Assembly: GCF_024124375.1 (NCBI RefSeq)
Contig: NZ_JAMXRZ010000043.1
Location: 1 to 32,672 of the forward strand
Reading direction: 5' to 3'
DNA length: 32,672 nt
Origin: Klenkia sp. PcliD-1-E
Lineage (GTDB): Bacteria > Actinomycetota > Actinomycetes > Mycobacteriales > Geodermatophilaceae
In this document: positions 14,512 through 23,707 of the stretch, piece by piece
Layout: each line of letters opens with the position of its first letter
How positions within the stretch are numbered: the first letter of the stretch is position 1
Position numbers and translations under genes: made by a program
Notes under the pieces: model-generated
What the model saw: only the letters and a program-made list of their open reading frames with translations
What the model was told of the DNA's origin: nothing
Database searches by the model: none

Positions 14512-17112
14512 ATGACCGACGCACCGTTCTCCGAGTCCGCCGTCCGCCGGGCCCTGGTCCGCGCCGAGCGGGGCGCCACCCTCGACGCGACCGAGGCCGA
14601 GGTGCTGCTGTCCGCCCGTGGCCTCGGCGAGGGCGAGCCGCTGGACCGGCTGCTCACCGCGGCCGGCCGGGTCCGCGATGCGGGGCTGGCCTCGGCCGGC
14701 CGCCCGGGCACGGTCACCTACAGCCGCAAGGTGTTCGTCCCGCTGACCCACCTGTGCCGCGACCGCTGCCACTACTGCACGTTCGTGACCACCCCGGGGC
14801 AGCTGCGCGCCGACGGCAAGGCCCCGTTCCTGTCCCCCGACGAGGTGCTGCAGATCGCCCGCGAGGGCGCAGCGCTGGGGTGCAAGGAGGCGCTGTTCAC
14901 CCTGGGCGACCGGCCCGAGGACCGCTGGCCGGTCGCGGCGCAGTGGCTGGAGGCGCACGGCTACGAGTCGACGCTGGGCTACCTGCGGGCTATGGCGATC
15001 CGGGTGCTGGAGGAGACCGGGCTGCTGCCGCACCTCAACCCCGGGGTGCTGTCGTGGGAGGAGATCCAGCGGCTCAAGCCGGTGTCGGCGTCGATGGGCA
15101 TGATGCTGGAGACCAGTGCCACCCGGCTGTTCAGCGAGCCCGGCGGCCCGCACTTCGGCTCCCCCGACAAGGACCCCGCCGTGCGGCTGCGCGTCATCGA
15201 GGACGCCGGCCGCTCCGCCGTCCCGTTCACCACCGGCGTGCTGCTGGGCATCGGCGAGACCCCCGCGGAGCGGGTGGACGCCGTGCTGCGCATCCGGGAG
15301 GCCGCGCAGCGGCACGGGCACGTGCAGGAGGTGATCGTGCAGAACTTCCGGGCCAAGCGGCGGACGGCGATGGCCGCCGCCGACGACCTCGCGCTGCAGG
15401 AGTTCCTGGCCGCGGTCGCCGTCACCCGCCTGCTGCTGGGCCCCCGGCACCGGGTGCAGGCGCCCCCCAACCTCACCGACCGCGCCGAGCTCGGCCTGCT
15501 GCTGCGCGCCGGTGTCGACGACTGGGGCGGGGTCTCCCCGCTGACGCCCGACCACGTCAACCCCGAGCGGCCGTGGCCGCACATCGACACCCTCACCGCG
15601 CTGACGGCCGAGGCCGGGTTCACCCTGCGCGAGCGGCTGGCCGCCCAGCCCGGCTACGTCACCGCACCCGAGCCGTGGCTGGACCCCCGGGTGCGACCGC
15701 ACGTCACGGCGCTCGCCGGGCCCGACGGCCTGGCGGTCGAGGGCCGGGTCCCGGTCGGGCTGCCCTGGCAGGAGCCCGACGACGCCTGGACCGCCAGCGG
15801 CCGGGTCGACCTGCACACCGCCATCGACACCGAGGGCCGCACGACCGACCGGCGCGGCGACTTCGACGCCGTCTACGGCGACTGGTCCGAGCTGCGCGAC
15901 CGCACGGTGGCCGCGCGGTCCGGGGCCTCCACCGCCCTGCCGGCGGGCGACCCCGAGGTGCACGCCGCCCTCGCCCGCGCCGAGGCCGACCCCGCCGGGC
16001 TGACCGACGCGCAGTACCTGGCGCTGCTGGGCGCCGACGGCCCCGACCTGGACGCGCTGGCCGCGCTGGCCGACGCCGTCCGCCGGGACACCGTGGGCGA
16101 GGACGTCACCTACGTGGTGAACCGGAACATCAACTTCACCAACGTCTGCTACACCGGCTGCCGGTTCTGCGCCTTCGCCCAGCGGCGCACCGACGCCGAC
16201 GCCTACACCCTCTCCCTGGAGCAGGTCGGCGACCGGGTCGACGAGGCCTGGGCCGGCGGCGCCACCGAGATCTGCATGCAGGGCGGCATCCACCCCGACC
16301 TGCCCGGCACCGCCTACCTCGACCTCGCCCGGGAGGTCAAGCGGCGGCAGCCCGGCATCCACCTGCACGCCTACTCACCCATGGAGATCGTCAACGGCGC
16401 CGCCCGCACCGGGCTGTCCTTCCGCGAGTTCCTCCTCGCCGCCAAGGAGGCCGGGCTGGACTCCATCCCGGGCACCGCGGCGGAGATCCTCGACGACGAC
16501 GTCCGCTGGGTGCTGACCAAGGGCAAGCTGCCGACCGCGACCTGGCTGGAGATCGTGCAGACCGCGCACGAGGTCGGCATCCCCTCGACCTCGACGATGA
16601 TGTACGGCCACGTCGACGCCCCCCACCACTGGGTCGCCCACCTGCGCACCCTGGCCGCGCTGCAGGACCGCACCGGCGGGTTCGCCGAGTTCGTGCTGCT
16701 GCCCTTCGTGCACCACAACTCCCCGGTCTACCTCGCCGGCGTCGCCCGCCCCGGCCCGACGATGCGGGAGAACCGGGCCGTGCACGCCGTCGCCCGCCTT
16801 CTGCTGCACGGCCGCATCCCGCACATCCAGACCTCCTGGGTCAAGCTCGGCGACGCCGGCACCCAGGTCGTGCTCACCGGCGGCGCGGACGACCTCGGCG
16901 GCACGCTGATGGAGGAGACCATCAGCCGGATGGCCGGCAGCGAGAACGGCTCGCTGAAGACCATCGCCGAGCTCGAGGCGATGGCCGCCGCCATCGGCCG
17001 CCCCGCCCGCCAGCGCACCACGGACTACGGGACGCCGAGCGCCGAGCGGCTGGCCACCGCCCGCTCCGACGCCGGCCGCCGCGCGCTCACCCTGCAGATC
17101 ACCCCCGCCTGA
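14512..17112 (+). CDS. fbiC: Bifunctional FO synthase FbiC (CofG-CofH fusion)
   Basis: This 866-residue double radical-SAM enzyme joins 5-amino-6-ribitylaminouracil and tyrosine to make FO, the deazaflavin core of coenzyme F420. The N-terminal CofG half has the 4Fe-4S motif C82RDRC86HYC89; the C-terminal CofH half has C546YTGC550RFC553. Both CX3CX2C sets are intact. Family stretches such as [21 protein letters not shown] and STMMYGH are visible. The length matches actinobacterial FbiC (about 850 residues). ATG 14512 follows GGAGGG at close spacing. It is downstream of a flavin reductase gene and no other F420 genes are in the window, which is usual because fbiA/fbiB lie elsewhere. Confidence 0.97.
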
Positions 17113-17229
17113 CCGCCGCCGCACGACTACGCAGCGTCACTGAGACGGCTGCCTGCCGGTACGGGTTGCACCCTGCAGCACGGGATGACTGCGCTGCGCC
17201 ACCGCTGAATCGAGGCGCGCCGGGACCCG

Positions 17230-17293
17230 TTGACAGCCCTGACGCAGGGTCACATCGTCGTGTCGACTTGTCGACGGGGGCGGCGCCGCCCCC
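17230..17293 (+). promoter_or_regulatory. Probable promoter and leader hairpin upstream of lipoprotein A
   Basis: A consensus -35 TTGACA at 17230-17235 is followed, after 17 bases, by the weak -10 CATCGT at 17253-17258. The short inverted repeat CCCTG-ACG-CAGGG (17238-17250) lies in the spacer. Next comes a perfect 18-base palindrome GGGGGCGGCGCCGCCCCC at 17276-17293, in what would be the leader about 85 bases before the GTG at 17378. The palindrome could instead be a late terminator of fbiC. Confidence 0.5.
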
Positions 17294-17377
17294 GCTTGTC
17301 CCGGGGGACGTTCGACAGGACAGGTGCGTCCCCCGCCGTGACCGCGGCGACCCACCGCGGCTGAAGGAGAAGCACGC

Positions 17378-18043
17378 GTGCGGAGAGCGTCCCGCCGATC
17401 CCGTCCCCGCGGCAGCCGAGCCCTGACCGGGCTCCTGGCCCTGCCCCTCGCCCTCGGCGTGCTCAGCGGTTGCTGGCTGCCCGACGTGAGCATGAGCCCC
17501 GGCGTCCCCGGTTCATCACCGGAGGCCACTGCCTCCCCGTCGTCGTCGGCGGCGGCCACCCCGACGGCCGAACCGGTCGCCGCGGCCGCCGACCGGCCGT
17601 CCGGCGACCTCGACGCCGGCTCGGTCACCCACGTGCAGCCGGCCGGGGACCGCGAGCTCGTCATCGACTACTGGACGACCCAGCAGGCCGTCGCGTGGAC
17701 CCCGGCGGACACCAAGTCGATCCAGCTCTCGGCGCACCTGGAGGGCGAGGAGTCCACCGCCAGCAGCATCGAGGTGCTGGTCACCCGGTTCTCCGCCGTC
17801 CTCGACGACGGCACCGCCCGCAGCACCGTCGTCGACGACCGGGGCGAGTTCGCCCTGCAGCCGCCCTTCACCTACGGCACCGCCCTCGAGCTGCCCCCGA
17901 CCGACCCGGCGGCCGCCTCGGTGACCGTCACCGTCCAGTTCGACCTGCTGGTGGAGACCGGTCGTGGCACCGACCGCTACTACCGGCAGACCGTGATCGA
18001 CACCCTCGACCTGCCGCTGCTGACCCAGGAGACCGACCGATGA
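17378..18043 (+). CDS. Lipoprotein A of duplicated lipoprotein-GT2 cassette
   Basis: This 221-residue secreted lipoprotein has a basic N-terminus, a hydrophobic stretch and the lipobox LSGC (Cys32). The mature end reads CWLPDVSMSP, then a Ser/Pro/Ala-rich linker (~42-75), then a ~145-residue domain beginning GDLDAGSVTHV, with IQLSAHLEG, EVLVTRFSAVLDDGT and QPPFTYGTAL as its clearest blocks. I do not recognise the domain; alternating strands suggest a beta-sandwich. The GTG start has AAGGAG 8 bases upstream. Its stop overlaps the glycosyltransferase start as ATGA, so the two are translationally coupled. A paralogue lies at 19795. It may be a surface partner of the polymer made by the glycosyltransferase, which is inference. 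Confidence 0.85.
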   Translation: MRRASRRSRPRGSRALTGLLALPLALGVLSGCWLPDVSMSPGVPGSSPEATASPSSSAAATPTAEPVAAAADRPSGDLDAGSVTHVQPAGDRELVIDYWTTQQAVAWTPADTKSIQLSAHLEGEESTASSIEVLVTRFSAVLDDGTARSTVVDDRGEFALQPPFTYGTALELPPTDPAAASVTVTVQFDLLVETGRGTDRYYRQTVIDTLDLPLLTQETDR

Positions 18044-19521
18044 CCGAGCTCGTCGTCAACCACATGCGCCGGTCGACCGACCGGGTCAACCTGCTCGCCC
18101 GCAGCGGCGACGCCGTCCCCGACATCAGCCTGCTGGTGCCGGCCGAGTTCGGCGGCCGGCACTCCGACGACCAGCGCCGGCACGCCACGATCAGCTGCGT
18201 CATCCCGGCCTACAACGAGGAGTCGACGATCGGTGCCGTCCTCACCTCGATCCTGACCCAGACCCGGCCGCCGGACGCCGTCCACGTCGTCATCAACAAC
18301 ACCGACGACGACACGCCCGAGGTGGTCGAGGCCTTCGTCGGCGAGCACCAGCGGGTGGTCAAGGGCGAGACCTACACGACCCACGTCTACGTGCACGACA
18401 TCGGCGAGAACCCCGACAAGAAGGTCGGCGCGCTGAACTTCGGCTACTACGTCAGCCGCGGCTACGACTACATCCTCGGCGTGGACGGCGACACCACGCT
18501 GGAGCGGCGGTGCGTGGAGTGGCTGGAGAAGGAGATGGTCACCGACCAGCGCATCGGTGGGCTCTCGGCGATCTACACCTTCGACAAGGGCGCGGTGTCC
18601 GGGCCGATGGCGAAGTTCCTGGTCGCCGGGCAGCGGGCCCAGTTCGCCGGGTTCAACATGGACAACCTGGTCCGCGGCCGGAACATGGCCGTCCTCGGCG
18701 GCCAGTGCTCGCTGTTCAGCGTCCGCGCGCTGGAGCGGGTCATGTACCTCAACCACCAGTCCGCGCCCTGGGTACGCGACTCCGAGGTCGAGGACTCCAA
18801 GCTCTCCCTGCAGATCAAGGACGCCGGCTACAGCACCAAGATCAGTGCTCGGGCGCGGGCCTTCGTGGGCCCGATGACCACCCTCCGGGCGCTCCACGGC
18901 CAGCAGGTGAAGTGGAACTTCGGCGGCATCGACCTGCTGTGGCCCGGCCAGCGCGGGGACACCAAGGGCCAGCCCATGCACCCCAACCTGCGGCTGCGCT
19001 GGTACGAGAACATCTCGATGGTCTTCAACATCACCACCCGCATGGCGTTCCTGCTGCTGCTGGCCGCGGCGCTGTCCATCGACGCGTTCGTGTTCAACCC
19101 GGTCTGGCTCATCCCGCCCGCGGTCGCGACGCTGCTGAACCTGCGGATCGCCACCTCGATGCACGACAAGAGCGCCTCGGACTTCTTCTACGCGCTGCTC
19201 GTGGCCCCCGCCGAGCTGTACATGTGGATCCGGATGGGCCACTTCGTCACGGCGTGGGTGCAGTTCTTCGCCCGCTCGGACAAGGACAACTGGGCCGCGC
19301 AGGCCGCTGCCGAGCGCGGCCGGGGCTCGCAGTACGTCATGCCGCTGATCTGCGCCGCCGCCACCTTCGTGGTGCTGATCTTCGCGTGGAGCCAGCAGGG
19401 CGTGGGCGTGCAGTCGGCCATCCTGTCCATCGGCTGGCCGGTGCTGTACCTGATCACCGTGCTGCAGACGCTGTTCATGATCAAGAAGCTGGTCCGCCGC
19501 CAGCGCGGCTTCACGGTCTGA
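18040..19521 (+). CDS. Membrane glycosyltransferase family 2, copy A
   Basis: This 493-residue protein has an N-terminal cytosolic GT2 domain: SCVIPAYNEESTIGAVL, the DxD-like D149-G-D151 in GVDGDTTL, an acidic SEVEDSK block at 248-254 (general-base region) and QQVKW at 288-292, a Q(Q/R)XRW variant with Lys for Arg. The last motif is the mark of processive synthases such as PgaC, cellulose and hyaluronan synthases. Four or five membrane helices follow (~340-490). It probably makes a beta-linked surface polysaccharide; sugar and linkage cannot be read. There is no PilZ domain. It starts at an ATGA overlap with lipoprotein A and ends before a strong terminator. A second copy of equal length is at 20475. 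Confidence 0.92.
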   Translation: MTELVVNHMRRSTDRVNLLARSGDAVPDISLLVPAEFGGRHSDDQRRHATISCVIPAYNEESTIGAVLTSILTQTRPPDAVHVVINNTDDDTPEVVEAFVGEHQRVVKGETYTTHVYVHDIGENPDKKVGALNFGYYVSRGYDYILGVDGDTTLERRCVEWLEKEMVTDQRIGGLSAIYTFDKGAVSGPMAKFLVAGQRAQFAGFNMDNLVRGRNMAVLGGQCSLFSVRALERVMYLNHQSAPWVRDSEVEDSKLSLQIKDAGYSTKISARARAFVGPMTTLRALHGQQVKWNFGGIDLLWPGQRGDTKGQPMHPNLRLRWYENISMVFNITTRMAFLLLLAAALSIDAFVFNPVWLIPPAVATLLNLRIATSMHDKSASDFFYALLVAPAELYMWIRMGHFVTAWVQFFARSDKDNWAAQAAAERGRGSQYVMPLICAAATFVVLIFAWSQQGVGVQSAILSIGWPVLYLITVLQTLFMIKKLVRRQRGFTV

Positions 19522-19540
19522 CCCCCAGCTCACCGAGCAG

Positions 19541-19569
19541 AGGGCCCGCGGTCGTCGACCGCGGGCCCT
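19541..19569 (+). terminator. Hairpin terminator after GT2 copy A
   Basis: Perfect 13-bp arms (19541-19553 and 19557-19569) with a GTC loop, 20 bases after the GT2 copy A stop. It separates the two cassettes, so cassette B must have its own promoter in 19570-19794. Confidence 0.88.
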
Positions 19570-19794
19570 CCGTCGTCCCGGGTGGGTGACAGGCGCCGTC
19601 GAACGGGTGGCCCCCCATCGGGTGGAAGACGTCCCGAAACCACCCCAACGGGTTCAGCGGGGTCGCAGGTCCGTTGACCGGTGGTGGCGGCCTGCCACAG
19701 GGTCAGCGGCACGAGCCCGGGCCGACGGCGATCCGGGTGCGCCGCGCACCGCGCGGCCGCTCGGCCCCGCCCGTGACACCCGGAGGAGACCCCG

Positions 19795-20478
19795 GTGAGC
19801 CCCCCTGCCCGAACGCCCAGGACGTTGCGCCGCGGCGTCCTCGTCGCCGCGATGCTGGCCAGTGCCGGCGTCCTGTCCGCCTGCCAGCTGCCCGACGTCA
19901 GCATGAGCCCGTCGGTGGCCACGTCCCCCGCCACCTCCCCCGCCACGTCGGCCGGACCGGAGGAGCCGTCGTCGGCGGCCGCCGTCCGCGAGGCGGCCGC
20001 CCCCGTCACGCCGACCACGCCCGCGCGGCCCGCCGGTGACCTGGACGCCGGCTCCGTGACCCACGTGCTCGCCGCCGGCAACCTCCAGCTCGTCGTCGAC
20101 TGGTGGACCGCCGAGCAGGCGACCACGTGGACACCGGCGGACGAGAAGACGATCCAGCTGTCCGCGCACCTCGAGGGCGGTGACACCGACGGGGAGACCG
20201 AGGTGCTGGTCACCCGGTTCTCGGCCGTCCTCGACGACGGCACGACCCGCACCTCGCTGAGCGACGACAGCGGCGAGTTCGCCATCCAGCCCCCCTTCAC
20301 CTACGGGACGGCGCTGTCCCTGCCCGCCTCCCCCGCCGGCACCTCCACCGTCACCGTCGACGTGCAGTTCGACCTGCTCGTGGAGACCGAGCCCGGCTCC
20401 CAGCGCTACTTCCGCCAGACCGTGCTGGACAGCCTCGTCCTGCCCCTGGTCGCCCCCACTTCCGAGGAGAACGAATGA
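19795..20478 (+). CDS. Lipoprotein B of duplicated lipoprotein-GT2 cassette
   Basis: This 227-residue lipoprotein has lipobox LSAC (Cys30) after a hydrophobic segment, mature start CQLPDVSMSP, a Thr/Pro/Ala-rich linker with SPATSPATS-type repeats (~40-80), and the same C-terminal domain as lipoprotein A (GDLDAGSVTHV to the end). The core blocks IQLSAHLEG, EVLVTRFSAVLDDGT and QPPFTYGTAL are identical to copy A, so they are likely structural or functional centres. GTG 19795 follows CGGAGGAG. The stop overlaps the next gene as ATGA. No characterised family is recognised. The pairing with its own glycosyltransferase in both copies argues that the two proteins act together. Confidence 0.85.
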   Translation: MSPPARTPRTLRRGVLVAAMLASAGVLSACQLPDVSMSPSVATSPATSPATSAGPEEPSSAAAVREAAAPVTPTTPARPAGDLDAGSVTHVLAAGNLQLVVDWWTAEQATTWTPADEKTIQLSAHLEGGDTDGETEVLVTRFSAVLDDGTTRTSLSDDSGEFAIQPPFTYGTALSLPASPAGTSTVTVDVQFDLLVETEPGSQRYFRQTVLDSLVLPLVAPTSEENE

Positions 20479-21956
20479 CCGAGATCGCCGTCCAGGGGAT
20501 GCGCCGGTCCACCGACCGGGTGACCCTGCTCGCCCGCAGCGGGGGCGACGTCCCCGACGTCAGCACGCTGGTCCCCGAGCAGTTCTCGGCCTGGAGCCAC
20601 TCGGGCAGCCGTCGCCACGCGACCATCGCCTGCGTCATCCCGGCCTACAACGAGGAGGCGACCATCGGCGCCGTCCTCACCTCGATCCTCGGCCAGACCC
20701 GGCCGCCGGACTCCGTCCACGTGGTCATCAACAACACCGACGACGACACCGCGGAGGTCGCCGGTCGCTTCGTCGGCCAGCACGAGCGGGTCGTCAAGGG
20801 CGAGACGTACACGACGGTCGTGCACGTGCACGACATCGGGGTGAACCCCGACCGCAAGGTCGGGGCGCTGAACTACGGCTACTACGTCAGCCGCGGCCAC
20901 GACTACATCCTCGGCGTCGACGGCGACACCACGCTGGACCGCTTCTGCCTGGAGTGGTTGGAGAAGGAGATGGTCACCGATCCGCGCATCGGTGGGCTGT
21001 CGGCCATCTACTCGTTCGAGAAGTCCGGGCTCAAGGGCGCGATGGCCAAGTTCCTGGTCGCCGGTCAGCGCGCCCAGTTCGCCGGGTTCAACATGGACAA
21101 CCTGGTCCGCGGCCGGAACATGGCCGTGCTCGGTGGCCAGTGCTCGTTGTTCAGCGTCCGCGCGCTCGAGCAGGTCATGTACCTCAACCACCAGGCGGCA
21201 CCGTGGGTGCGCGACTCGGAGGTCGAGGACTCCAAGCTCTCCCTGCAGATCAAGGACGCCGGGTACAGCACCAAGATCAGCGCCCGCGCCCGCGCCAACG
21301 TCGGTCCGATGACGACCCTGCGGGCGCTGCACGGCCAGCAGGTGAAGTGGAACTTCGGCGGCATCGACCTGCTGTGGCCCGGTCAGCGCGGGGACACCAA
21401 GGGCCAGCCGCTGCACCCGAACCTGCGGCTGCGCTGGTACGAGAACGTCTCGATGGTCTTCAACATCGTCAGCCGGATGGCGTTCCTGCTGCTGCTGGCC
21501 GCGGCGCTGTCCATCGACGCGTTCGTGTTCAACCCGGTCTGGCTCATCCCGCCGGCGGTCGCGACGCTGCTGAACCTGCGCATCGTGGCGTCCATGCACG
21601 ACAAGAGCGCGTCCGACATCTTCTACGCGTTGCTGGTCGTCCCGGCGGAGCTGTACATGTGGATCCGGATGGGCCACTTCCTCAGCGCGTGGACGCAGTT
21701 CTTCGCGCGGTCGGACAAGGACAACTGGGCGGCGCAGGCGGCCGCCGAGCGGGGCCGCGGGTCCCAGTACGTGATGCCGCTGGTGTGCGCCGCCGCGACC
21801 TTCGCCGTCCTGATCTTCGCCTGGACGCAGCAGAGCACCCAGATCCAGTCCGCCATCCTGTCCATCGGGTGGCCGGTCCTGTACCTGCTGACCGTGCTGC
21901 AGACGCTGTTCATGCTCAAGAAGCTGGTCCGCCGGCAGCGCGGCTTCACCGTCTGA
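20475..21956 (+). CDS. Membrane glycosyltransferase family 2, copy B
   Basis: This 493-residue paralogue of the protein at 18040 has all motifs conserved: ACVIPAYNEEATIG, GVDGDTTL (Asp149/Asp151), SEVEDSK and QQVKWNFGG, then the same C-terminal membrane helices, with the sequence between residues ~205 and ~330 almost unchanged. The first 60 residues differ most (EQFSAWSHSGS against AEFGGRHSDDQ), suggesting that this cytosolic arm has adapted to something specific for each copy. A change at 185-192 lies beside the catalytic domain. It overlaps the lipoprotein B stop (ATGA). No hairpin is seen in the 44 bases before the next gene. Confidence 0.92.
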   Translation: MTEIAVQGMRRSTDRVTLLARSGGDVPDVSTLVPEQFSAWSHSGSRRHATIACVIPAYNEEATIGAVLTSILGQTRPPDSVHVVINNTDDDTAEVAGRFVGQHERVVKGETYTTVVHVHDIGVNPDRKVGALNYGYYVSRGHDYILGVDGDTTLDRFCLEWLEKEMVTDPRIGGLSAIYSFEKSGLKGAMAKFLVAGQRAQFAGFNMDNLVRGRNMAVLGGQCSLFSVRALEQVMYLNHQAAPWVRDSEVEDSKLSLQIKDAGYSTKISARARANVGPMTTLRALHGQQVKWNFGGIDLLWPGQRGDTKGQPLHPNLRLRWYENVSMVFNIVSRMAFLLLLAAALSIDAFVFNPVWLIPPAVATLLNLRIVASMHDKSASDIFYALLVVPAELYMWIRMGHFLSAWTQFFARSDKDNWAAQAAAERGRGSQYVMPLVCAAATFAVLIFAWTQQSTQIQSAILSIGWPVLYLLTVLQTLFMLKKLVRRQRGFTV

Positions 21957-22000: not shown

Positions 22001-23707
22001 GTGACCACCGCCCTGGAACAGCTGGCCGACCGGTTCGTCGACGAGTACGCGGCCGCCGTGCCGACGGTGGCCACGTACATCGGCGTGCGCGGCCACGACC
22101 ACCGCTGGCCCGACCACTCCGCCGCCGGGCACGCGGCCGTGGCCGACCTGCTCCGCACGACCGTGGCCGCCGCGCAGGCGTGCCCGGTGGAGGGGCACCG
22201 CGAGGAAGTGGCGCGGGCGGCGATGGTGGAGCGCCTGTCCGCCGAGCTCGCCCGGTACGACTCGGGCTGGGCCGACGCGGACCTCAACTCCATCGAGTGC
22301 CCGCTGCAGGGGTTCCGGGAGACGTTCGACTCGATGCCGGTCGACACCGTCGAGGACTGGACGACGGTCGCCGCCCGCCTGGAGGCCCTGCCGGCAGCGG
22401 TCGACCGCTACCTCGAGGGGCTCGACGCCGCGGCCGACGCCGGCCGGGTGGCCGCCGTCCGGCAGGTCCGGCTGGCCGCGGCGCAGGCCCGCCGGTGGGC
22501 CGGCACGCCCCACGTGCCCGGCTTCTTCAGCGCCTTCGCGGCCGACGGTCCCGCGGAGCTGGCCGACCGGCTGCGACCCGCCGCCGACGGCGCGCACGAT
22601 GCCTTCCTGCGCTTCGCCGACCACGTCGAGCGTTCCCTGCTGCCCCGGGCCCCCGAGGCCGACGCCGTGGGCCGCGAGCGCTACGCGATGGAGTCCCGGT
22701 TCCACACCGGCACGGCGCTGGACCTGGAGGAGACCTACGCCTGGGGTTGGTCCGAGCTCGCCCGGGTCGTCGCCGAGAAGGCCGCCGTCGCCGAGACCAT
22801 CGCACCCGGGCAGGGCGTCGCGGGGGCGATGGCCGCCCTGGACGCCGACCCCGCCCGTCTCGTCCGCGGTCGGGCGGCGCTGCAGCGGTGGCTGCAGGAC
22901 ACCGCCGACCGGGCCGTCGCGGCGCTGGACGGGGTGCACTTCCAGATCGCCGGTCCGGTGCGCCGGATCGAGGGCCGGTTGACCCCGACCTCGGGCGCGG
23001 GCGTCTACTACTCGGCCCCCAGCGAGGACTTCACCCGGCCCGGCCGCATGTGGTGGTCGTTGCCCGACGGGGTGGACGAGATGACCACCTGGCGGGAGAC
23101 CACCACCGTCTTCCACGAGGGCGTCCCCGGCCACCACCTGCAGATCGGGCAGACCGTGCACAACGCCGCCTCGCTCAACCGGTGGCAGCGGCTCCTGCTC
23201 GCCTGCTCCGCGCACGCCGAGGGCTGGGCGCTGTACGCCGAGCGGCTGATGGGCGAGCTCGGGTTCCTGGACGACCCGGGTGACCGGCTGGGCATGCTGG
23301 ACGCGCAGGAGCTGCGGGCCGCCCGCGTCGTGCTCGACATCGGCGTGCACCTGGACCTGCCCATCCCCGCCGGGCACGGCGTCGACGCCGACCGGTGGAG
23401 CTACGACGTCGCCCTGCGCTTCCTGCGCGACCACGTGTCGATGCAGGACCAGATGCTGGTCGACGAGCTGCACCGCTACCTGGGCTGGCCCGGGCAGGCG
23501 CCGGTCTACAAGGTCGGCGAGCGGGTCTTCCTCGCTGCGCGGGAGGAGGCCCGGGCCCGGCACGGCGACGCCTTCGACCTCACGGCCTGGCACCACGCCG
23601 TCCTGGACCTCGGCCCGCTGGGGCTGGGCCCGCTCACCGAGGAGCTCGCCCGTCTCCAGGGCACCCGCAGGCGGCCCGGGGATGCGGTCGGGGGTGCGGC
23701 TTGGTAG
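22001..23707 (+). CDS. DUF885 family protein (putative metallopeptidase)
   Basis: This 568-residue cytosolic protein is mostly helical. Its mark is FHEGVPGHHLQ near residue 371 (His372), the HEGxPGHH motif of DUF885, a likely zinc site resembling gluzincin peptidases; a distal Glu in AHAEGWALYAE (~residue 408) would be the third ligand. Family members have been linked to peptide hydrolysis, but the activity is poorly defined. The GTG at 22001 fits the family start (TTALEQLADRFVDEY) and has a TACGGT -10 hexamer 6 bases upstream. An open frame running back through the glycosyltransferase gene is a GC-rich shadow. It is followed after 9 bases by the MDR oxidoreductase gene and may share its transcript. 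Confidence 0.9.
   Translation: MTTALEQLADRFVDEYAAAVPTVATYIGVRGHDHRWPDHSAAGHAAVADLLRTTVAAAQACPVEGHREEVARAAMVERLSAELARYDSGWADADLNSIECPLQGFRETFDSMPVDTVEDWTTVAARLEALPAAVDRYLEGLDAAADAGRVAAVRQVRLAAAQARRWAGTPHVPGFFSAFAADGPAELADRLRPAADGAHDAFLRFADHVERSLLPRAPEADAVGRERYAMESRFHTGTALDLEETYAWGWSELARVVAEKAAVAETIAPGQGVAGAMAALDADPARLVRGRAALQRWLQDTADRAVAALDGVHFQIAGPVRRIEGRLTPTSGAGVYYSAPSEDFTRPGRMWWSLPDGVDEMTTWRETTTVFHEGVPGHHLQIGQTVHNAASLNRWQRLLLACSAHAEGWALYAERLMGELGFLDDPGDRLGMLDAQELRAARVVLDIGVHLDLPIPAGHGVDADRWSYDVALRFLRDHVSMQDQMLVDELHRYLGWPGQAPVYKVGERVFLAAREEARARHGDAFDLTAWHHAVLDLGPLGLGPLTEELARLQGTRRRPGDAVGGAAW

What the first reader, a model, noticed from the sequence alone, without database searches (positions are those of the whole stretch)
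17378..21956. Tandemly duplicated two-gene cassette: unknown lipoprotein coupled to a processive-type GT2
Two lipoprotein-GT2 pairs stand in tandem, each pair joined by ATGA, each with its own upstream region, and separated by a strong terminator. The glycosyltransferases are the same length and about 86% identical by eye. They keep D149/D151, SEVEDSK and QQVKW, the motif set of processive beta-glycan synthases (PgaC, cellulose synthase class) with Lys in place of Arg. The lipoprotein linkers have diverged completely while the outer domain is kept. A dedicated lipoprotein per synthase suggests a two-part export or anchoring system for a surface polymer, not matching the Pga, Ica or Bcs partner sets I know.
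Basis: partly seen in the sequence, partly recalled or inferred. Interest (0 to 1): 0.68.

Follow-up and report, generated by a model that had tools for sequence, protein, structure and literature searches.

The report
Duplicated lipoprotein and glycan-synthase gene pair
A soil-type actinobacterium carries two side-by-side copies of a two-gene unit that probably makes a cellulose-like polymer at the cell surface, each copy pairing a membrane sugar-polymerising enzyme with its own uncharacterised surface lipoprotein, a partnership found in several groups of actinobacteria.

Summary
Two lipoprotein-GT2 pairs stand in tandem (17378-21956), each overlapping by ATGA. The GTs are 86% identical, the lipoproteins about 60%. 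The tandem is local: an old duplication in Klenkia with differential loss. The pairing is broad. Of 71 GT loci fetched, 66 carry a lipoprotein of one of two related families in the flanks. In a draw of 394 class genomes, GT and lipoproteins have the same distribution: 22 of 22 GT genomes have one; 0 of 372 others at E<=1e-10. No Pfam or NCBIfam family passes its cut-off for the lipoprotein; its model is a beta-sandwich behind a disordered linker. The GT resembles processive membrane synthases but has no PilZ and no N-terminal transmembrane helix. In relatives the pair lies beside a GH6 cellulase (17 of 23 class loci; GH8 in one). Best reading: a synthase-dependent beta-1,4-glycan (probably cellulose-like) system whose extracytoplasmic partner is a lipoprotein, in the slot held by BcsB, CcsB or GlxA elsewhere. 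Product and lipoprotein function are inferred. The window genome has no GH6/GH8 hit, and four GTs of 52-54% identity have neither lipoprotein.

The parts
17113..17377 (.). non-coding region between cofGH (FO synthase) and the first cassette; probable promoter region
   Evidence: gap between ORFs; no sigma-70-like site found
17378..18043 (+). lipoprotein a (221 aa): signal peptide, lipobox LSGC (Cys32), low-complexity linker, conserved outer domain
   Evidence: no Pfam or NCBIfam hit at E<=1
18040..19521 (+). GT2 synthase a (493 aa), ATGA overlap with lipoprotein a
   Evidence: (PF00535, PF13641)
19540..19570 (+). perfect 14-bp GC-rich hairpin between the cassettes, possible T-less terminator; a comparable hairpin follows the first cassette in K. 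soli (L007)
   Evidence: not listed by the terminator scan
19795..20478 (+). lipoprotein b (227 aa): signal peptide, lipobox LSAC (Cys30), linker, beta-sandwich domain (about residues 81-217)
   Evidence: AlphaFold2 block means 88-98 over residues 81-220; only sub-cut-off family hits: DUF6550 15.2 of 27 bits, CU044_5270 21.4 of 100 bits
20475..21956 (+). GT2 synthase b (493 aa), ATGA overlap with lipoprotein b
   Evidence: AlphaFold2 model mean pLDDT 80; Foldseek ranks hyaluronan, chitin and cellulose synthases first

Best explanation
Each cassette encodes a minimal synthase-dependent polysaccharide machine. The GT2 has a cytosolic GT-A domain and about four C-terminal transmembrane helices; it polymerises a beta-linked glycan from a UDP-sugar and threads it through the membrane. 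The co-translated lipoprotein is anchored on the outer face of the membrane. Its beta-sandwich, on a flexible linker, contacts the synthase exit and/or the emerging chain and so serves as the extracytoplasmic partner, in the slot that BcsB, CcsB or GlxA fills in other cellulose systems. The product is most likely a beta-1,4-glucan (cellulose-like). In Nocardioides- and Plantibacter-type relatives, the same synthase and lipoprotein(s) come with a GH6 hydrolase that would trim or release the chain, and with a response regulator, in about half of the loci also a histidine kinase and a GGDEF-like protein, for control. In the Geodermatophilaceae, Actinoplanes and Kineosporia loci only the two-gene core stays together. 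In Klenkia the core was duplicated in tandem, and each synthase kept its own lipoprotein. Shown: anatomy, gene coupling, co-occurrence, neighbourhoods, duplication history. Inferred: processivity, sugar and linkage, physical contact between the two proteins, and what the lipoprotein does.
For: Pairing: 66 of 71 fetched GT loci hold a lipoprotein ORF in the flanks (57 type A, 9 type B). In 51 of 56 upstream type-A pairs as called (54 with alternative starts) the lipoprotein stop overlaps the GT start by 1 or 4 nt; 6 of 9 type-B genes overlap the GT stop by 4 nt, in the opposite gene order. Co-occurrence: GT in 22 of 394 class genomes (every match is at E<=4e-221, so the 1e-70 threshold is not critical); type A at E<=1e-10 in 10, type B in 14; the union is exactly the 22, and 0 of 372 others. 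The two lipoprotein families are related (hhalign probability 95.3, E 2.2e-8). Substrate: of 23 class GT loci, 17 have GH6 and 1 has GH8 nearby. Synthase: the 67 aligned homologues keep DxD, ED and QQVKW; 33 of Foldseek's first 34 rows are titled hyaluronan, chitin or cellulose synthase, the other 'membrane-integrated glycosyltransferase' (TM-scores only 0.44-0.56). Independent duplication in G358: two GTs, each with its own type-B lipoprotein. Precedent: synthase plus a non-homologous partner in Bcs, Ccs and CslA-GlxA (PMC11022532, passages).
Against: The window genome has no GH6 or GH8 hit, and no GH6 or GH8 lies in the flanks of L006-L053, so the substrate clue comes from GTs about 52-61% identical. 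By NCBIfam profile the nearest family is PgaC/IcaA (64.6 bits against a 422.3 cut-off), not BcsA, so a GlcNAc-type polymer remains possible; GH6 CslZ also cleaves chitin and peptidoglycan (PMC9040799, passages). Four GTs at 52-54% identity (L069, L070, L071, L076; two of them in MAGs) have neither lipoprotein in their genomes, so the GT may work without one, or with one too diverged to see. G267 has its type-A lipoproteins unlinked from the GT. In VIA the top row is a mannosyltransferase, and other non-processive GT2s score as high as the synthases. The GT lacks the N-terminal transmembrane helices that HAS and BcsA have (their topology recalled). A GGDEF-like neighbour inspected looks degenerate.
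Confidence: 0.6

Rival explanations
1. Same synthase-lipoprotein pairing, but the polymer is a GlcNAc-containing glycan (PNAG- or chitin-like), with the lipoprotein as anchor or chaperone.
For: Nearest NCBIfam models are PgaC/IcaA (66 of 67 members) and, for 39 of 67, NodC, all far under cut-off where shown; Foldseek ranks hyaluronan and chitin synthases above the first BcsA; GH6 CslZ also hydrolyses chitin (PMC9040799, passages).
Against: No deacetylase domain (PgaB/IcaB type) among the neighbours scanned; the recurring hydrolases are GH6, and GH8 in one locus.
Confidence: 0.2
2. The lipoprotein is not part of the synthase: it is a surface adhesin or glycan-binding anchor that holds the finished polymer at the cell wall.
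For: Beta-sandwich on a long disordered linker with a lipid anchor; VIA lists the V. cholerae matrix protein RbmA at Z 9.8, 3.0 A over 111 residues, although this is a common fold; linker length and sequence vary freely.
Against: Translational coupling and the co-occurrence fit a stoichiometric partner at least as well; no carbohydrate-binding module matched.
Confidence: 0.3
3. The GT2 is not processive: it transfers one sugar to a lipid or wall acceptor and the lipoprotein is an acceptor or assembly factor.
For: VIA's top row is the mannosyltransferase PcManGT (Z 22.7), and several other GT2s that are not polymer synthases score 19-21; no N-terminal transmembrane segment in the 66 rows testable.
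Against: Invariant QQVKW and hydrophobic C-terminal segments; Foldseek aligns full-length processive synthases first; hydrolases for beta-1,4-glycans next to relatives.
Confidence: 0.12

Closest known systems
Streptomyces CslA-GlxA-CslZ(-LpmP) cellulose synthase locus (PMC11022532, PMC9040799; passages read)
   Same: Actinobacterial membrane GT2, translationally coupled extracytoplasmic partner, GH6 hydrolase nearby (in the relatives of our pair)
   Different: Partner is a lipoprotein beta-sandwich, not the copper radical oxidase GlxA; no PilZ match here (CslA has PilZ elements); QQVKW instead of QxxRW; in relatives, regulator genes beside it
Bcs cellulose systems (BcsA-BcsB-BcsZ)
   Same: Synthase plus partner outside the membrane plus an endoglucanase (GH8 in L106, the family of BcsZ); related fold
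   Different: No PilZ match and no BcsB-like match for the lipoprotein; no BcsA model among the NCBIfam hits at E<=1; these organisms are monoderm
Clostridial CcsZABHI (PMC7710045, passages read)
   Same: Gram-positive synthase with a non-homologous partner (CcsB) and a cellulase (GH5)
   Different: CcsA has PilZ; CcsB is described as unlike proteins outside Clostridia; no O-acetylation genes among the neighbours scanned here
Romboutsia ilealis RiGT2 mixed-linkage glucan synthase (PMC10374906, passages read)
   Same: Gram-positive GT2 polymer synthase without BcsB
   Different: PilZ present, QRDRW motif; the word lipoprotein does not occur in the paper
PgaC/IcaA PNAG synthases (TIGR03937)
   Same: Nearest NCBIfam profile
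   Different: 64.6 bits against a 422.3 cut-off; no PgaB/IcaB deacetylase among the neighbours scanned

Membership tests
PgaC/IcaA (TIGR03937) | score above the curated cut-off (422.3 bits) | tested here: not met
   64.6 bits for both copies
PgaC/IcaA (TIGR03937) | PgaB/IcaB polysaccharide deacetylase encoded beside it | tested here: not met
   the three flanking genes scanned in the window are cofGH, DUF885 and alcohol dehydrogenase; no wider search for a deacetylase was made
Bacterial cellulose synthase BcsA | C-terminal PilZ domain | tested here: not met
   Pfam finds only three GT2 models in each copy at E<=1
Bacterial cellulose synthase BcsA | D, DxD, ED and Q(Q/R)xRW motif set | tested here: inconclusive
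   DxD, ED and QQVKW invariant in 67 of 67 aligned; Lys replaces Arg, and the usual DD(G) site (position recalled) reads NN
Bacterial cellulose synthase BcsA | BcsB partner | tested here: not met
   the coupled partner is the lipoprotein; 0 of 58 members scanned match a BcsB model in Pfam at E<=0.01; BcsB was not sought elsewhere in the genome
CslA-GlxA-CslZ system | coupled copper radical oxidase GlxA | tested here: not met
   the coupled gene encodes a 221-227 aa lipoprotein with no Pfam family over its cut-off
CslA-GlxA-CslZ system | GH6 hydrolase at the locus | tested here: not met
   none in the window genome; present in 17 of 23 class loci, all relatives
Actinobacterial GT2-lipoprotein pair (the family defined here) | GT2 matching profile A1 at E<=1e-70 together with a type A or type B lipoprotein in the genome | tested here: met
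   22 of 22 class genomes with the GT; 0 of 372 without have a lipoprotein at E<=1e-10; but four GT genomes outside that draw have none
Membrane-integrated processive synthases (general class) | processive polymer synthesis and translocation | not testable with these tools
   needs biochemistry; fold and motifs agree

The most novel reading that the evidence does not exclude
An undescribed lineage of actinobacterial beta-1,4-glycan (cellulose-type) synthase machines whose second subunit is a lipid-anchored beta-sandwich protein of an unnamed family (two related forms, A and B), a partner type distinct from BcsB, CcsB and GlxA. The synthase has no N-terminal transmembrane helices and carries QxxKW. 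The machine exists as a bare two-gene core in Geodermatophilaceae, Actinoplanes and Kineosporia, and as a regulated GH6 cluster in Nocardioides and Plantibacter relatives.
Probability: 0.45. Interest if true: 0.75.

Novelty: new variant of a known kind. Interest (0 to 1): 0.6.

Why it matters
Beta-glycan synthesis in Gram-positive bacteria is poorly charted: the passages read describe each known cellulose system, Bcs, Ccs and CslA-GlxA, as a core synthase with its own unrelated partner. If this reading is right, the lipoprotein is a further partner type, present with its synthase in 22 of the 394 class genomes sampled, and it explains an unannotated protein family. The two-gene core is small enough to test directly: co-express the pair and ask whether polymer appears only when the lipoprotein is present. 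The Klenkia duplication gives a natural test of whether each synthase needs its own lipoprotein.

Tried and rejected
Chance repeat or assembly artefact: rejected. The copies differ by 14% in protein, have separate places in the trees, and K. soli carries the same tandem.

Recent gene conversion between the copies: synonymous differences are spread along the gene in both tandem genomes, with no clear tract.

A functional hint from the lipoprotein fold: Foldseek and VIA gave common beta-sandwich matches (arrestin, ApaG, FnIII-like; best VIA Z 10.6), so no function was inferred. Searches of solved-structure sequences gave nothing useful for type A or B.

Nocardioides 'cluster 63' as a lipoprotein: rejected on inspection; it looks like a Maf protein (name recalled), and the real lipoprotein is downstream.

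Link to the Actinoplanes sporangium-matrix clusters (imp, wps, gsf): passages of PMC13390465 and PMC12691653 describe Wzx/Wzy and GtrA clusters, not this pair.

c-di-GMP control: of four GGDEF-like neighbours scanned, two pass Pfam's cut-off (L107, L113), one is under it (L055) and one has no hit (L108); the one inspected by eye looks degenerate, so control by c-di-GMP is not claimed.

Distant GTs (about 40% identity; L077, L078, L079) have neither lipoprotein beside them, and G047 has neither in its genome. They are treated as a different subfamily.

In print: eight library searches listed no paper on this lipoprotein-GT2 pair. Six of the lists were capped (for example 10 of 423, 12 of 67); only listings and passages were seen, no paper was read whole, and subscription journals are mostly missing. 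[quoted passage not shown] the word lipoprotein does not occur in it.
Full report
What is there. The window is G000:C200 of a 4.5-Mb genome; its nearest named relatives are Klenkia species (Geodermatophilaceae). Between cofGH (FO synthase, 14512-17112) and a DUF885 gene (22001-23707) lie two cassettes: lipoprotein a 17378-18043 with GTa 18040-19521, and lipoprotein b 19795-20478 with GTb 20475-21956. Within each pair stop and start overlap as ATGA. The GTs are 493 aa each and 86.0% identical (424/493); the lipoproteins are 60% identical over 218 aligned positions. dN is 0.093 and dS 0.329 between the GT copies, so both are under purifying selection. A perfect 14-bp hairpin (19540-19570) lies between the cassettes; it has no T-tract and the terminator scan did not list it. 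Searches of the own genome find no third lipoprotein and only a distant partial GT at a contig end (36%).

The synthase. Pfam gives GT2 domains only, with no PilZ. The usual DD(G) site reads NN (N86, N87 invariant). There is no N-terminal transmembrane segment: the highest 19-residue hydropathy mean before the GT-A domain is 1.15 in the 66 rows testable (one row, L057, had a truncated start). The window GTb has four strong C-terminal segments; the simple threshold gives 3 or 4 in 62 of 67 rows. The AlphaFold2 model has mean pLDDT 80. Of Foldseek's first 34 rows, 33 are titled hyaluronan, chitin or cellulose synthase and one 'membrane-integrated glycosyltransferase'; TM-scores are moderate (0.44-0.56) with large rmsd. 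VIA ranks PcManGT first (Z 22.7, 3.4 A, 295 residues), with HAS (Z 21.3, 5.0 A, 361) and a Bcs synthase chain (Z 20.6, 4.2 A, 331) close behind, tied with GT2s that are not polymer synthases. The fold therefore fits a processive synthase but does not prove it. NCBIfam's nearest model is PgaC/IcaA, far under its cut-off.

The lipoprotein. Both copies have a signal peptide with a lipobox Cys, LPDVSMSP after it, a low-complexity linker, and a conserved domain of about 140 residues. No Pfam or NCBIfam family passes its cut-off; copy b has weak hits to DUF6550 (E 0.025) and CU044_5270 (E 0.00019, 21.4 of 100 bits), and in Pfam each of three families is hit by one of the 58 members at E<=0.01. The domain is modelled with high confidence as an eight-stranded beta-sandwich; structure searches return common sandwich folds.

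How widespread. One scan of genome contigs gave 71 loci: Klenkia, Geodermatophilus, Blastococcus, Modestobacter, Goekera, Trujillonella, Actinoplanes/Paractinoplanes, Symbioplanes, Kineosporia, Nocardioides, Plantibacter, Galbitalea, Amnibacterium and some MAGs. Of these 71, 57 have a type A lipoprotein in the flanks; in four Plantibacter loci it is divergent, in the other 53 it is upstream. Nine (eight titled Nocardioides and one Actinomycetota MAG) have instead a second form (type B) directly downstream, and five have neither in the flanks. Type A and type B align by profile comparison (probability 95.3, E 2.2e-8). Of the five without, L074's genome has a type B match elsewhere on the same contig; the genomes of L069, L070, L071 and L076 have neither. 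As called, 51 of 56 upstream type-A pairs overlap by 1 or 4 nt, 54 of 56 with alternative starts; 6 of 9 type-B genes overlap the GT stop by 4 nt.

Co-occurrence. In a draw of 394 genomes of the class, GT profile A1 matches 22 at E<=1e-70, and every one of these matches is in fact at E<=4e-221. Type A matches 12 at E<=1e-4, of which 10 are at E<=1e-10; the two weak ones (G070, G170) cover only model positions up to 98, the signal and linker part. Type B matches 14, each at E<=1e-28. The 10 and the 14 share two genomes and together are exactly the 22 GT genomes; none of the other 372 has one at E<=1e-10. I assume the three searches drew the same 394: the group sizes are equal and the listed handles overlap. 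Limits: A2 (58 of 60 type-A rows in hand) and A3 (9 of 9) were built from genes found beside the GT; in these class searches only the top few first-look candidates per genome were scored (4 for the GT, 7 for the lipoproteins), so absence is less sure than presence; and the genomes are not independent (6 families, 8 genera). In G267 the lipoproteins are not near the GT, so the co-occurrence does not rest only on adjacency. G358 has two GTs, each with its own type-B lipoprotein: a second, independent case of one lipoprotein per synthase.

Neighbourhoods. I extended the GT loci of the class survey (22 fetched loci plus the window, 23 in all). GH6 lies in the fetched stretch in 17, GH8 in one (L106), neither in five (L109, L111, L114, L118 whose contig ends inside the regulator, and the window, judged). 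Pfam confirmed GH6 in seven proteins and GH8 in L106; the rest rest on a home-made profile seeded partly from these same loci. A response regulator is near in 19 of the 22 fetched loci, and a histidine kinase with a GGDEF-like protein in 10. Among the 71 named loci GH6 is near 10, in Nocardioides, Plantibacter and Galbitalea records, and near none of L006-L053. The window genome has no GH6 or GH8 hit while other genomes rang in the same searches; 4 of the 8 other Klenkia genomes have a GH6 gene elsewhere, one of them also GH8.

History of the tandem. The 9 Klenkia-group genomes searched all carry the GT; two have the tandem (G000 and G004, which corresponds to K. soli), and G003 (K. marina) has a 40-residue 3' remnant between cofGH and the surviving cassette. 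In G008 (73% complete) the contig starts inside the cassette, so a second copy there is not excluded. In the GT tree (19 rows chosen from 74) the a-copies (window, K. soli, K. taihuensis) group at 81/78 and the b-copies at 99/99, within a Klenkia clade at 95/99; the lipoprotein tree (18 rows chosen from 60) gives 100/100 and 97/92 for the same groups. So one duplication before the sampled species split, with lipoprotein and GT travelling together, then loss of one or the other copy. The GT a-clade support is modest.

Mechanism and comparison. In the published systems read here in passages, a cellulose synthase works with one non-homologous partner outside the membrane: BcsB, CcsB (PMC7710045) or GlxA (PMC11022532), and a cellulase (BcsZ, CcsZ, CslZ) stands at the locus; CslZ is a GH6 lipoprotein (PMC9040799). 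The pair described here has the same plan, with the beta-sandwich lipoprotein in the partner's place. That is an analogy of organisation; it is not membership: PilZ, a BcsB partner and a GlxA partner were tested at the locus and not met. The sugar is inferred from neighbours of relatives at about 52-61% identity, so a GlcNAc polymer is a live rival.

Verdict. A real, conserved, uncharacterised synthase-lipoprotein system, best called a new variant of synthase-dependent (probably cellulose-type) polysaccharide machinery.

Noticed in passing
L008 4931-5041 (K. marina; also L080 4206-4367): Remnant of the 3' end of a lost first GT copy between cofGH and the surviving cassette.
   Followed up: partly
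L077, L078, L079: A distant GT2 subfamily (about 40% identity) with neither lipoprotein beside it; in two Klenkia genomes (L077, L078) a different lipoprotein-like gene lies convergent to it.
   Followed up: no
G000:C215 (L081 2-805) and L082 5765-6892: Odd GT2 relative (34-36% identity), ending at a contig edge in the window genome; in L082 it too has a convergent lipoprotein-like gene.
   Followed up: no
L010: Record titled Modestobacter sp. Leaf380 groups with Klenkia in both trees; probably misnamed.
   Followed up: partly
L070: MAG titled Acidobacteria carries a GT at 53% identity, like the Amnibacterium ones (54%); possible mis-binning, not tested.
   Followed up: no
L106 3-5713: Beside the GT-lipoprotein-GH8 locus lies a second GT2 with two beta-helix proteins and a UDP-glucose/GDP-mannose dehydrogenase: perhaps a second polysaccharide system.
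   Followed up: no
L067 4575-5825, L110 10552-11940, L113 11574-12896: Secreted proteins near Nocardioides-type GT loci that look alike by eye; the L067 one has carboxypeptidase-regulatory/SpaA-like domains. They may be a further component.
   Followed up: no
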